Below, piece after piece: positions 1 through 44,712 of a stretch of DNA of 45,116 bases. The stretch lies in NCBI GenBank assembly GCA_900319225.1, contig ONNV01000015.1:1-45116 (forward strand), written 5' to 3'. Position numbers and translations under genes: made by a program. The notes beneath the pieces were generated by a model that saw only the letters and a program-made list of their open reading frames with translations, was not told the origin of the DNA and made no database searches. The stretch is from an uncultured Prevotellaceae bacterium (GTDB taxonomy: Bacteria > Bacteroidota > Bacteroidia > Bacteroidales > Bacteroidaceae). Numbering within the stretch: the first letter of the stretch is position 1; the number at the start of each line of letters is the position of its first letter.

Positions 1-490
1 TCTTTAGTGCCAGATTGCAGGAGATGCAACAAATTAGAGTAATAGACACGGGTCTAATCAAAGTAATAGTATCGCTCCACTCCTGTTAACTATATGATCA
101 GGATAGCAAATACCGGCCTGAAACTATAATCATCCCTTCTTGTAACAAAACTATAAAGAAGGGTTTACTCAGTTGGTAATATCGGAAACGAGGGACACCA
201 TTAGAGGGCGTCCCCCGCGATATCCGCATTGTAACAAACTCAGCGATAACAGCTTCTAAAAAAACGTCCAAAAATATTTGGAAAAGTCTTAGAATACTGT
301 TACGCGCCGCAGGTGCGTAAAATGGAGGCGATCGATGTTTAGGTCTCGTAGGGGTACGGAGTAGCCCCGGAACGTTGTCTCTCCAACCCCATAGTCCGGC
401 GTTGTCCCGGAACGTTGTGTCCCCAAGGGGGATAGTCCGGCGGAGGCTTCGGAACGTTGCGTCCCCAATACGTATGTCCGGCGGAGACCA
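1..490. other. Non-coding left edge, no supportable gene
   Basis: No recognisable gene is seen here. Open frames cross it on the minus strand, but they run through the tandem repeat at 368-484 and their translations are repeats of that DNA, so I do not call them. A hairpin with 8-bp arms (cccttctt at 134-141, aagaaggg at 156-163) is followed by ttta on the plus strand and could be a weak terminator of a gene ending left of the window. The stretch 297-317 holds another small dyad (ttacgc...gcgtaa). Confidence 0.5.
368..484. repeat. Three tandem hairpin repeat units of about 40 bp
   Basis: Three direct copies start at 368, 408 and 450 (periods 40 and 42). Each begins cggaacgttg, has a middle close to gtccccaaggggata, and ends tagtccggcg or tgtccggcg. 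The outer CCGGA/TCCGG and, in the second unit, the inner CCCC/GGGG are complementary, so each unit can fold as a hairpin. The same unit occurs at 32259-32293 and, inverted, at 32098-32120. The flank just before the array (about 331-367) also resembles 32221-32258. This marks a dispersed repeat family. Confidence 0.8.
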
Positions 491-29216: not shown

Positions 29217-31015
29217 TGAACAATTCAACTGAGGAGATAGAGAAACAGACCGAATCGCTGCTCAACAAGTTCAATCTGTGGCGGCGCAGTCATATCAGCG
29301 AGCGACAGTTCATCCTGCTGCTCAGTCTGATGGTTGGCGTTTTCACCGCTTTTGCGGCTATACTGCTCAAGTACCTTATTTCACTTATCCACGGTACCAT
29401 TTACGGTAACCTGGTGATGAACTCTGAGAACTACAGCCTGCTGCTCTATCCGGTAGTGGGCATCCTGGTATCGGGCCTTTTCATCCGTCTGATCGTACGT
29501 GATGACATAGGTCACGGCGTAACCAAGATTCTCTATGCGCTGTCCAAGAAAAACGGCCGCATCAAACCTCACAACATGTACTCATCGGTCATTGCCAGTG
29601 CCATCACCATCGGTATGGGCGGATCTGTGGGTGCCGAGTCTCCTATAGTGCTTACGGGCTCCGCAATCGGCTCCAATATCGGCCGTATGTTCAAGATGGA
29701 GCACCGCACGCTGATGCTGCTTGTGGGCTGCGGATCGGCCGGTGCCATTGCCGGCATCTTCAAGGCTCCTATTGCAGGACTTGTGTTTGTGCTTGAGGTG
29801 CTTATGTTTGACCTGAGCATGGGATCGCTGCTGCCGTTGCTGGTATCATCCGTGACAGCTGCCACCATATCATACGTATTCACCGGAACGGATTCCATGT
29901 TTCATTTCGTCTCCGAGCACGGATTTGAACTGGCACGTATACCGTATGCGCTGCTGCTGGGCATCACCTGCGGTCTTGTGTCACTCTATTTCTCCCAGAC
30001 CATGCACTGGTTTGAGACCTGGTTCAAGAGATTCCACAACCCCTGGGTCAAATTCGTTATCGGCGCAGTGGTACTGAGTATACTCATATTCCTGTTCCCG
30101 TCCCTGTTCGGTGAGGGTTATGACACCATAGGCATGCTGCTCAATGTGAACGAGAACCCTGAGAAGGTAATGGAGGGCTCCCTGTTCTACGGCGGCAATA
30201 TCCTGCTTTATCTGGGGCTTGTGGTGCTTACCAAGGTGTTTGCATCGACCGCAACAAATGCGGGAGGCGGATGCGGCGGTATATTCGCACCCAGCCTGTT
30301 CCTGGGCTGTCTCACGGGATTCATATTCGGAACGCTCATGAACCGCCTCTCACCGGGTGCCGATATATCGGTCCAGAACTTTGCACTGCTGGGTATGGCC
30401 GGTCTCATGTCGGGCGTCATGTTCGCTCCGCTTACCGGCGTGTTCCTCATAGCCGAACTCACCGGCGGTTACTCCATGTTCCTGCCGCTCATGATGGTAT
30501 CCATCATGTCATACCTCACCATACGCCTGTTCCAACCGCACTCCATCTACTCCATGCGTCTTGCGCAGAAGGGTGAACTCATGACACACCACAAGGACCA
30601 GTCAGTCCTGCTCCTTATGAGTATGGACAACCTTATAGAGAAGGAGTTCCTCAAGGTCAGTCCCGATATGGACCTGGGGCAGCTGGTAAATATCATTGCC
30701 CGCTCCAAGCGTAATCTTTTCCCGGTTGTGGATGAGGCTGAAAGCCTGGTGGGCATCGTCAGTCTGGAGAGTATCCGTAACATCATGTTCCGTCAGGAAC
30801 TGTATCATAGGTTTACGGTGCAGAAACTCATGGAACTGCCGCCTGCCCGTCTGTCGGTAAAGGACCCCATGGAAACGGTGATGAAAAAGTTTGATGAGAC
30901 CGGAGCCTGGAACCTCCCCGTAGAGGACGAGAACGGCCATTACGTAGGTTTCGTCTCCAAGTCCAAGATTTTCAACTCATACAGAAATGTCTTACTTGAG
31001 CTTTCTGAGGAGTGA
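29216..31015 (+). CDS. ClC-family chloride channel or transporter with CBS pair
   Basis: Inner-membrane anion transporter of 599 residues. The ClC core spans about 30-440 with the ion-path motifs GMGGSVGAESPIVLTG (gating Glu in the GxEGP-like GAESP), GHGV in place of GSGIP, and GGGCGGIFAPSLFLG (the GxFAP motif). Two CBS repeats form the cytoplasmic C-terminus (about 470-590; KVSPDMDLGQLVNIIARS and LSVKDPMETVMKKF). Keeping the gating Glu suits either a Cl-/H+ exchanger or a gated channel. fmt begins 46 bp after its stop. Confidence 0.93.
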   Translation: MNNSTEEIEKQTESLLNKFNLWRRSHISERQFILLLSLMVGVFTAFAAILLKYLISLIHGTIYGNLVMNSENYSLLLYPVVGILVSGLFIRLIVRDDIGHGVTKILYALSKKNGRIKPHNMYSSVIASAITIGMGGSVGAESPIVLTGSAIGSNIGRMFKMEHRTLMLLVGCGSAGAIAGIFKAPIAGLVFVLEVLMFDLSMGSLLPLLVSSVTAATISYVFTGTDSMFHFVSEHGFELARIPYALLLGITCGLVSLYFSQTMHWFETWFKRFHNPWVKFVIGAVVLSILIFLFPSLFGEGYDTIGMLLNVNENPEKVMEGSLFYGGNILLYLGLVVLTKVFASTATNAGGGCGGIFAPSLFLGCLTGFIFGTLMNRLSPGADISVQNFALLGMAGLMSGVMFAPLTGVFLIAELTGGYSMFLPLMMVSIMSYLTIRLFQPHSIYSMRLAQKGELMTHHKDQSVLLLMSMDNLIEKEFLKVSPDMDLGQLVNIIARSKRNLFPVVDEAESLVGIVSLESIRNIMFRQELYHRFTVQKLMELPPARLSVKDPMETVMKKFDETGAWNLPVEDENGHYVGFVSKSKIFNSYRNVLLELSEE

Positions 31016-31061
31016 GCGTAAAAATGCCGATATCCCTAATCTGTTTGATATAATGCCTGCT

Positions 31062-32027
31062 ATGGAAAAGAAAGAGCTGAGGATAGTGTTCATGGGAACC
31101 CCGGAGTTTGCGGAGTTCACCCTGCGTCGTCTGGTAGAGGACCAATATAATATAGTAGGTGTGGTAACCATGCCCGATAAACCCATGGGCCGTCACGGCA
31201 GCGTGCTCCAGAGCAGCCCCGTCAAGAAATATGCGGTGGAGCAGGGGATACCCGTTCTCCAGCCCGAGAAACTTAAGGATCCTCTGTTCATCGAACAGCT
31301 CCGTGCCCTTAAGGCCGATCTCCAGATAGTCGTTGCCTTCCGTATGCTCCCCGAGATAGTATGGAACATGCCCCGTCTGGGCACATTCAACCTCCACGGC
31401 TCACTGCTGCCCCAGTACCGCGGTGCCGCTCCCATAAACTGGGCCATCATAAACGGTGACAAGGAGACAGGAGTAACCACCTTCTTCCTCAAGCATGAGA
31501 TAGACACCGGTGACATCATCTATCAGGAGCGCATACCCATCCTCCCGGATGACAATGCCGAGACCATGCATGACAAACTGATGGCGCTTGGAGCAGACCT
31601 CACAGCCCGCACCCTCCAGGATATCCTTGCCGGTACCATCAAACCTATCCCGCAATCAGAGATCCCGGCCGATGAGCTCCGTCCCGCTCCCAAGATCTTC
31701 AAGGAGACCTGCCGCATAGACTGGAACCAACCCACCACGCGCGTCCGTGACTTCATCCGCGGTCTCTCCCCATACCCCGCCGCCTGGACCGTCCTCAGAA
31801 CCCCCGACGGCACCGATAGCGACTTCAAGATCTTCTCGGCCCAGCCCGTCCCCGATGCCCCCCTCCAGACACCCGGCACCATAACCTGCGACGGTCGCAA
31901 GAACCTGATCGTATCAACCGCCGACGGAGCCCTCCGCCTTGATGACGTCCAGCTAGCCGGCAAGAAGAGAATGCCCATCTGCGCCTTCCTCTGCGGCAAC
32001 GACCTCTCCGCCTGCACCTTCATCTGA
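31062..32027 (+). CDS. fmt: Methionyl-tRNA formyltransferase
   Basis: Formylates initiator Met-tRNA using 10-formyltetrahydrofolate. The start is placed at ATG 31062 (MEKKELRIVFMGTPEFAEF), which gives a normal N-terminus; ATG 31053 is also possible, and ATG 30987 overlaps the ClC gene and is unlikely. Motifs: VVTMPDKPMGRHG, the folate-binding NLHGSLLPQYRGAAPINWAIING and TGVTTFFLKHEIDTGDI. The last third uses C-ending codons more heavily than its neighbours. The structured repeat at 32047 begins 19 bp past its stop. Confidence 0.96.
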   Translation: MEKKELRIVFMGTPEFAEFTLRRLVEDQYNIVGVVTMPDKPMGRHGSVLQSSPVKKYAVEQGIPVLQPEKLKDPLFIEQLRALKADLQIVVAFRMLPEIVWNMPRLGTFNLHGSLLPQYRGAAPINWAIINGDKETGVTTFFLKHEIDTGDIIYQERIPILPDDNAETMHDKLMALGADLTARTLQDILAGTIKPIPQSEIPADELRPAPKIFKETCRIDWNQPTTRVRDFIRGLSPYPAAWTVLRTPDGTDSDFKIFSAQPVPDAPLQTPGTITCDGRKNLIVSTADGALRLDDVQLAGKKRMPICAFLCGNDLSACTFI

Positions 32028-32046: not shown

Positions 32047-32340
32047 GAAAAACTTGGATTCCGCGGCCCGGACTATGCAATGTTTCCATTTGCAGTAGCC
32101 GGACTATCCCCTTTGGGGACCATCAGTGCAGCGACGTTAAGCGGAGCCCCCTGGAGGATCCCGTTAAGAACGGCGCATGTCTGACGAACGTTAGACCCCG
32201 AAGGGGGCTATAAGGAGGAGTTCGACGTTTAGGGTCCGGAAGGGAGGCGTAGTAGTCGCGGAACGTTGTGTCCCCAAAGGGGATAGTCCGGCGTAGTTAG
32301 AAAAAGCAACATGGTCCGGACCACGAAATCCAAGTTTTTC
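32047..32340. repeat. Structured 294-bp inverted-repeat element (MITE-like)
   Basis: Ends are perfect 14-bp inverted repeats (gaaaaacttggatt at 32047-32060, aatccaagtttttc at 32327-32340). Similarity between the arms continues inward over 74 and 71 bases, ending in a perfect 23-bp inverted pair (32098-32120 and 32270-32292). A further internal pair agccccct/agggggct lies near 32145 and 32202. The right arm contains one copy of the unit found in tandem at 368-484. No target-site duplication or coding capacity is seen. It fills the fmt to ECF sigma gap. Confidence 0.8.
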
Positions 32341-32486: not shown

Positions 32487-33083
32487 ATGCAGAATTTAAT
32501 TCAGCTCACCGACGACCAGTTGGTAGCACTCTATTCTAACGGAAACACAAAGGCGTTCGATACCCTTTTATCACGTTATCAGGATAAGTTGTACTCGTAC
32601 ATCAACTTTGTTGTACGCAACCGCGACCTTGCCGATGACATATTCCAGGATACATTCGTAAAAGCAATAGTAACCCTTCAGAAAGGCAATTATACCAGTA
32701 CCGGCAAGTTCGGTGCCTGGCTCACACGTATAGCCCATAACCTCATAATTGACTACTTCCGTCAGGACAAGAATGAGAATACCGTGAGCAATGACGCTCA
32801 GGAGTACGATCTTCTCAATGACGCCAGCCTGGCCGAGTCAAACGTAGAGGACTGCATGATCAATGACCAGACCCTGCGTGACGTGCGCCGCCTGGTCGAT
32901 GCGCTCCCCGACAACCAGCGTGAGGTAGTGTTCATGCGCTATTATCAGGACCTCAGTTTCAAGGAGATTGCCGATATCACAGGCGTATCCATCAATACTG
33001 CATTGGGCCGTATGCGCTACGCACTCATCAATATCCGCAAGATGGCCGGTGAGAAGGGCATTGCGCTCACACTCGCAAGCTAA
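32487..33083 (+). CDS. ECF-type RNA polymerase sigma factor
   Basis: Sigma-70 family protein of 198 residues. Region 2 appears as LADDIFQDTFVKAIVTLQKG with the DNA-melting segment KFGAWLTRIAHNLIIDYFRQ, and region 4 as LPDNQREVVFMRYYQDLSFKEIADITGVSINTALGRMRYAL with its helix-turn-helix. Unlike the sigma gene at 16671 it is not followed by a membrane anti-sigma gene, but by a small soluble protein gene (33184). A strong promoter of its own lies upstream. Confidence 0.94.
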   Translation: MQNLIQLTDDQLVALYSNGNTKAFDTLLSRYQDKLYSYINFVVRNRDLADDIFQDTFVKAIVTLQKGNYTSTGKFGAWLTRIAHNLIIDYFRQDKNENTVSNDAQEYDLLNDASLAESNVEDCMINDQTLRDVRRLVDALPDNQREVVFMRYYQDLSFKEIADITGVSINTALGRMRYALINIRKMAGEKGIALTLAS

Positions 33084-44668: not shown

Positions 44669-44712
44669 ACAAGGTTTCCACTTGCACACACCAACACGGT
44701 TTCCCTTTGCAC
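44669..44712. repeat. Two direct copies of a 19-bp motif
   Basis: acaaggtttccacttgcac (44669-44687) and acacggtttccctttgcac (44694-44712) match at 16 of 19 bases, period 25. A similar string (aatgtttccatttgca) is inside the left arm of the inverted-repeat element at 32079-32094, which ties the two intergenic regions together. Confidence 0.6.

What the first reader, a model, noticed from the sequence alone, without database searches (positions are those of the whole stretch)
32047..32340. A 294-bp multi-arm inverted-repeat element, no coding capacity
Perfect 14-bp terminal inverted repeats, 74/71-nt arms, a perfect 23-bp inner pair and internal stems are far beyond chance. It shares its unit with the tandem array at 368-484 and a short string with 44669-44712. 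It may be a non-autonomous mobile element (MITE), a structured RNA, or a DNA site for a cellular protein. It sits right before an ECF sigma promoter, so it could also act on that gene.
Basis: partly seen in the sequence, partly recalled or inferred. Interest (0 to 1): 0.7.

Follow-up and report, generated by a model that had tools for sequence, protein, structure and literature searches.

The report
Nested structured hairpin repeat, genus-specific
This stretch is one of many scattered copies of a gene-free repeat seen here in only one genus of gut bacteria; each copy folds into a long hairpin whose paired letters change together, and here it sits inside the arms of a second, different hairpin repeat.

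Summary
The inverted-repeat architecture at 32047-32340 is real and far beyond chance. It is one of about 17 places in its own genome, present in 26 of 37 congeneric genomes and 0 of 64 other relatives; a structure-aware search of 301 family genomes matched one genus of 30. It has two layers. (1) A core of about 222 nt (32079-32302) folds into one long interrupted hairpin: across 69 filtered copies 39 of 54 pairs show compensatory changes, G-U outnumbers A-C in inner helices (63 to 8), and no Rfam family matches. (2) The outer arms, including the 14-bp ends, are not fixed: similar arms elsewhere enclose another module, or almost nothing, and the module differs between species at two orthologous sites. 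Copies are mostly intergenic, randomly oriented and polymorphic between species. One IS110-family element has entered the same core site in six copies. Best reading: a non-autonomous mobile structured repeat nested in another palindrome, enzyme unknown. RAYT, reverse transcriptase, replication-strand bias and a linked gene found no support. Transcription and function are untested; target duplications unresolved. New variant of a known kind.

The parts
32047..32077 (.). left arm of the outer palindrome; its first 14 bases are the perfect terminal inverted repeat
   Evidence: arm not shared with most other copies
32310..32340 (.). right arm of the outer palindrome
32079..32302 (+). core repeat, about 222 nt, approximate ends, conserved between copies in the genus
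   Evidence: nhmmer match in the window; alignment A1 of 69 copies
32098..32120 (+). arm A, left strand: variable between copies but paired in most of them
   Evidence: helices 1-3, 80 to 96% of cells paired
32270..32292 (+). arm A, right strand
32142..32254 (+). inner conserved part with near-invariant loops (CCGTTAAGAAC, GTTTAG, GAGTA); match to covariance model R1
32191..32213 (+). apical hairpin of the core
   Evidence: helix 13
32214..32215 (+). position that corresponds to the site where one IS110-family element has entered six other core copies (not occupied here)
292..490 (+). right half of another core copy (292-406), cut on its left by other DNA, with two extra right-arm units (396-445 and 446-490)

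Best explanation
The 294 bp are a composite of two palindromic repeats. The inner one is a copy of a genus-specific, non-autonomous mobile element of about 222 nt whose active form is a folded single strand (the + strand as written here); selection keeps the fold while the stem sequences drift. The outer one is a simpler hairpin whose arms flank the core. Shown: dispersal, mostly intergenic position, random orientation to neighbours, presence/absence and orientation differences at orthologous sites, compensatory evolution, strand asymmetry of the inner helices, and a different module in place of the core inside similar outer arms. Inferred: that an enzyme acting in trans reads the folded strand (single-stranded DNA or RNA) and moves the core, and that insertion into, or recombination at, hairpin centres makes the nested architecture. 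The enzyme was not found.
For: Copies: 22 matches at about 17 places in the own genome; 26 of 37 congeners, 0 of 64 other relatives; covariance model 14 of 301 family genomes, all in one genus of 30. Structure: 39 of 54 pairs with double changes; 542 cells changed on both sides against 147 in shuffles; covariation score 0.442 against 0.151 shuffled and at most 0.109 with slid partners. In-place compensation of one pair: G006 AACGGCG/CGCCGTT against G020 AACGCCG/CGGCGTT in copies at the same site with nearly the same inner part. Strand: inner helices G-U 63, A-C 8; arm A 27 against 12. Polymorphism: at the formyltransferase/ECF-sigma site the core (whole, double or half) is in 7 of the 29 congeners read, a different module in 2, no core in 20. 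Module exchange at another site: L267/L272 hold module 2, L293/L294 the core, in similar arms and flanks. At a third site, of 13 congeners with recognisable outer arms the core is forward in 3, inverted in 7, reduced in 3. Outer arms AACTTTTTGGGGTATC enclose interiors of discrete sizes, 53 to 320 nt in total. Outer-arm matches of score 30 or more: 29 of 93 copies within a copy, 70 of 3000 random pairs between copies.
Against: No transposition was observed and no clean target-site duplication found. No linked gene family: the most frequent one lay near copies in 4 of 46 orthology groups and far away in 7. No replication-strand bias: 55 of 100 copies, p 0.37; 21 of 46 groups, which gives no support to lagging-strand transposition of the IS200/IS605 type. 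The 100 copies fall into 46 groups with similar flanks, so many are inherited and current activity may be low. At the one site where I counted, the outer arms do not co-vary significantly (6 cells against 3.1 expected, 91 of 1000 shuffles as high). Where a conserved 5' extension of the outer arm is recognisable it lies on the core's left in 16 copies and on its right in 4 (20 of 29): this polarity fits arms and core moving together as one unit as well as nested insertion.
Confidence: 0.6

Rival explanations
1. A multi-copy structured RNA with a cellular job (an sRNA or RNA-protein scaffold) that has been duplicated around the genome; the fold is kept because the RNA works.
For: Strand-specific covariation and near-invariant internal loops look like a functional RNA.
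Against: No match in 11 of 37 congeners (drafts) and absent or reduced at orthologous sites; orientation to neighbours random, 14/13/12/9; no Rfam match. Promoters and transcripts were not examined.
Confidence: 0.2
2. A classical MITE: the outer inverted repeats are the ends of a DNA transposon and a DDE transposase moves the whole 294 bp.
For: Short, gene-free, multi-copy, inverted ends; one family of outer arms occurs in 16 of 37 congeners; constant polarity of arm extension and core in 16 of 20.
Against: Ends differ between loci and are recognisable in only 29 of 93 copies; with at most 1 mismatch no arm pair encloses a gene-sized stretch in 37 genomes (read by eye); no clean target duplication.
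Confidence: 0.1
3. No selection on the fold: the arms match because hairpin-templated copying (template switching or inverted-repeat conversion) keeps correcting the palindrome.
For: Outer arms show no clear G-U excess (13 against 10 in 19 copies); the palindromes beside one RAYT gene also match within each copy.
Against: Does not explain the core: asymmetric internal loops stay conserved and uncorrected, and G-U exceeds A-C 63 to 8 in the inner helices.
Confidence: 0.06
4. A REPIN mobilised by the RAYT (Y1) transposases of this genus.
For: Y1_Tnp genes occur in 23 of 37 congeners, one in the own genome; one core copy lies inside a RAYT-type palindrome (L037; L081 has a palindrome without core there).
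Against: 0 of 30 RAYT loci (of 42 Y1 matches, 1500 nt each side) held a core match at E 1; 11 of the 30 have palindromes of another type (GGGACGGTTC). Core-bearing genomes G007, G008, G026 and G033 show no Y1 gene (drafts).
Confidence: 0.03
5. A cis-acting regulator of the ECF sigma gene.
For: It lies directly upstream of the conserved promoter region.
Against: The promoter region is kept in congeners without the core; other copies sit beside unrelated genes in any orientation.
Confidence: 0.01

Closest known systems
ERIC/IRU, RPE, YPAL and similar small mobile intergenic repeats (PMC2229807, passages seen)
   Same: Multi-copy, gene-free or nearly so, fold into long stem-loops, proposed non-autonomous mobile elements.
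   Different: Sizes in the passages seen are 105-168 bp, and its table gives terminal repeats or target duplications for several; this core is about 222 nt, with unfixed outer arms and an interior that can be another module. Sequences were not compared.
BrickBuilt and other MITEs of Porphyromonas gingivalis (PMC4596501, passages seen)
   Same: Also Bacteroidales (recalled); about 10-20 copies; similar ends around unlike interiors; tandem units; a MITE found inside a BrickBuilt copy.
   Different: BrickBuilt ends resemble IS5-family ends and its array has 23-nt units. Sequences were not compared.
REP/REPIN and TIR repeats of RAYT transposases (PMC3733652, passages seen)
   Same: Palindromes inserted within longer palindromes are described there for GTAG-15, GTAG-23 and CGTC-1 elements; other palindromes lie beside some RAYT genes in this genus.
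   Different: REPs are 20-40 bp with a GTAG or CGTC tag; the core is about 222 nt and was at none of 30 RAYT loci.
REP sequences as IS110 targets (IS621; PMC11208160, passages seen)
   Same: An IS110-family element has entered the same site of six core copies.
   Different: The target is another repeat; its bridge RNA was not analysed.
HEARO-type RNAs (recalled, nothing read)
   Same: Multi-copy structured RNA, many copies without a gene (recalled).
   Different: No Rfam match and no linked gene found.

Membership tests
MITE | short, gene-free, multi-copy, mostly intergenic | tested here: met
   (4 of 53 copies overlap a mechanically called ORF)
MITE | constant terminal inverted repeats related to an insertion sequence | tested here: not met
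   outer arms vary between loci, 29 of 93 copies with score 30 or more; no arm pair around a gene-sized stretch in 37 genomes
MITE | target-site duplication | tested here: inconclusive
   empty sites could not be aligned cleanly
REP/REPIN of RAYT | same repeat flanks a Y1 transposase gene | tested here: not met
   0 of 30 RAYT loci
REP/REPIN of RAYT | 20-40 nt unit with GTAG-like tag | tested here: not met
   core about 222 nt; GTAG or GGAG does occur beside arm A in many copies, which I take as coincidence
structured RNA | compensatory base changes beyond chance | tested here: met
   not tree-aware
structured RNA | transcribed | not testable with these tools
   no expression data
any of 4227 Rfam families | match to the covariance model | tested here: not met
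   window at gathering score; nine loci at E up to 5, six matches, none over the element
retroelement moved by a reverse transcriptase | a reverse transcriptase in the genome | tested here: not met
   RVT_1 in 7 of 37 congeners, none in the own genome (drafts)
integron attC site | inverted core sites (RYYYAAC/GTTRRRY, recalled) at both ends of the hairpin | tested here: inconclusive
   not seen by eye; no attC model was run

The most novel reading that the evidence does not exclude
The core is the RNA part of an unrecognised RNA-protein mobile system, with all copies seen so far lacking the gene; it spreads into hairpin centres and is itself the programmed landing site of an IS110 element.
Probability: 0.1. 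Interest if true: 0.85.

Novelty: new variant of a known kind. Interest (0 to 1): 0.52.

Why it matters
It adds a large structured repeat family without an Rfam match. My searches of the held open-licence papers listed nothing that describes it; most subscription papers are not held there. If mobile, it is a natural experiment: the same site in many species holds the core forward, inverted, reduced or replaced, so the rules by which hairpin repeats enter, swap and leave can be read from alignments. The IS110 insertions give a natural target set for bridge-RNA work.

Tried and rejected
RAYT/REPIN: 0 of 30 RAYT loci carry the core. Reverse transcriptase: none in the own genome. Linked partner gene: none. 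Lagging-strand bias: none. Insertion sequence with the same outer arms: no arm pair at gene distance. Phage or plasmid carriage: no match in 50,697 phage and 72,556 plasmid records; an exact 18-mer absent from viral contigs. Rfam: nothing over the element. My first impression that outer arms co-vary between orthologues did not hold at the site counted (9 of 13 genomes extracted). Target duplications could not be defined. The flank comparison (134 same, 51 smaller, 38 other of 223) is not used as a measure: many of its pairs are one copy fetched twice.

Rows dropped: from 182 nhmmer hits 94 distinct near-complete copies were kept (model start at most 24, end at least 205); 69 remained after length, flank and 88% identity filters. 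Orientation counts use 48 of 69 copies (53 had 700-nt flanks; 4 overlapped an ORF; 1 had no neighbour on one side). The strand test on columns uses 37 of 54 pairs, picked by me for double changes; pairs that are mostly G-U were left out except one (columns 96/215, 25 G-U); without it the inner count is 38 to 7. The pairs come from a program that favours + strand folding, a bias towards G-U; arm A and outer arms were counted by a strand-neutral alignment instead. The covariance model uses 39 of 55 stretches.

Full report
Observation. The element is as described. The inverted pairs, the perfect 23-bp inner pair and the 14-bp ends are present, and the + strand folds 10 standard deviations better than shuffles (the - strand likewise). 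It lies between a formyltransferase gene (30987-32027) and an ECF sigma gene (32487-33083).

Copies. A DNA search of the own genome gives 22 matches at about 17 places, several cut by contig ends; two of these places (C3:60640, C17:108) have matching arms and may be halves of one copy. Among 101 genomes 26 of 37 congeners match and 0 of 64 others. A covariance model of the inner part (R1) matches 14 of 301 family genomes; all 14 are congeners (21 congeners are listed), and no other of 30 genera matches (at most 12 candidates per genome scored, stricter filters). It was not found in viral contigs, phages or plasmids at the sensitivities used.

Two layers. Aligning copies separates a conserved core of about 222 nt from the outer arms. 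Of 93 copies 29 have outer arms of score 30 or more (70 of 3000 for random pairs between copies), and these arms differ between loci. The arm family AACTTTTTGGGGTATC (at most 1 mismatch) occurs in 16 of 37 congeners, mostly as convergent pairs of discrete total sizes, 53 to 320 nt; I saw none around a gene-sized stretch. I read 30 fetched stretches, most of them picked for interior sizes other than the core's. The core model finds the core in 6 of 30 (L283, where it lies beside the arms, and L290-L294); by eye most others hold a second module (GTCGCCACC..GGGAGGGATAG..GTAGTTT or variants), often with a further hairpin at its tip; L274 and L276 hold almost nothing; L266 reads N inside. Relative to a conserved 5' extension of the arm (GTGCAC or GTGAGC) the core is inverted in L290. 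Over 29 copies with arms the extension is recognised on the core's left in 16, on its right in 4, not in 9.

Orthologous sites. (a) L267 and L272 hold module 2 and L293 and L294 the core between similar arms and flanks. (b) Formyltransferase/ECF site, 29 of 37 congeners read: core in G000, G006, G020, G026, twice in G007, a right half at contig ends in G005 and G019; another module in G021 and G022; no core match in the remaining 20. (c) Upstream of a gene that begins MDFKYDVIVIGAG (by recall mnmG-like, not tested), 30 loci fetched, 29 printed: 13 congeners share recognisable outer arms, with the core forward in 3, inverted in 7 and reduced in 3 (two of these three are remnants by eye only); G002 keeps one arm; G007 has a core fragment without recognisable arms; G006 could not be read; the others show no arms. 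(d) At a fourth site, without outer arms in the own genome, the core is present in 5 of 30 loci and remnants are seen by eye in at least two more. One core copy with arms sits inside a RAYT-type palindrome; another genome has a palindrome without core there (L037, L081).

Structure. On 69 copies RNAalifold finds 54 pairs, 39 with a change on both sides. Counts: 95.3% of cells paired (79.1% shuffled), 542 cells with double changes (147 shuffled), score 0.442 (0.151 shuffled; 0.040 to 0.109 slid), 0 of 500 shuffles as high on any of five measures. The tool warns that related sequences can exceed shuffles, so a tree-aware test is still wanted. One in-place compensation is seen between G006 and G020 at site (b); in G026 the same helix has lost one pair. 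G-U against A-C: 63 to 8 in inner columns, 47 to 21 in arm columns; by strand-neutral alignment 27 to 12 in arm A and 13 to 10 in outer arms. The core is therefore probably folded on one strand, RNA or single-stranded DNA; the outer arms show no clear sign of it and, at site (c), no significant co-variation.

Behaviour. Orientation to the two neighbours is random (14, 13, 12, 9 of 48 copies; 4 of 53 overlap a called ORF). 100 copies in 20-kb stretches form 46 groups with similar flanks; there is no link with GC skew (55 of 100, p 0.37; 21 of 46 groups; 25 of 41 with stronger skew). No gene family recurs beside the copies. RAYT and reverse transcriptase do not fit.

Landing site. One IS110-family element (357-aa transposase with PF01548 and PF02371) joins the core at the same point (..AAG) in L136, L157, L095, L079, L058 and L123, six contexts, two of them (L095, L123) identical over the last 60 nt. 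Its right junction is read in L136; the same right-junction sequence stands at L172 and L176. Other repeated DNA cuts the core near AACGTT in own-genome copies. Extra right-arm units, as at 396-490 of the window, occur in L007, L038, L101 and L126 too; recombination at short shared strings is my inference.

Verdict. A structured, dispersed, probably mobile repeat lying inside another palindrome. Precedents exist for the kind (passages); the size, the strength of compensatory evolution and the exchange of interiors within similar arms make it a new variant. Whether arms and core move as one unit or the core enters existing hairpins is open. The enzyme and any function are unknown.

Noticed in passing
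L136:4679-6259; L157, L095, L079, L058, L123: One IS110-family element inserted at the same site of six core copies: a natural target set for its bridge RNA.
   Followed up: partly
L023:1023-1096 and 1964-2037; L200, L209, L216, L224 and others: 11 of 30 RAYT (Y1) loci of this genus have palindromes of the GGGACGGTTC type within 1500 nt; beside L023 the two palindromes differ by a base that is changed in both arms.
   Followed up: partly
L179, L181, L265, L267-L273, L275, L277-L289: A second module (GTCGCCACC..GGGAGGGGCCC..GGGAGGGATAG..GTAGTTT and variants) in similar outer arms, often with a further hairpin of about 50 nt at its tip; read by eye.
   Followed up: partly
L002, L021, L283, L290: Some core copies hold an extra short palindrome (CTTTTGCGTAGCAAAATAAAA..) in their right half.
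   Followed up: no
L003:1824-2023: Cobalamin riboswitch about 100 nt downstream of one core copy.
   Followed up: no
window 44679-44711: Two strings like the left edge of the core (TTTCCACTTGCA, TTTCCCTTTGCA) near a hairpin; the core model finds nothing there at E 10.
   Followed up: partly
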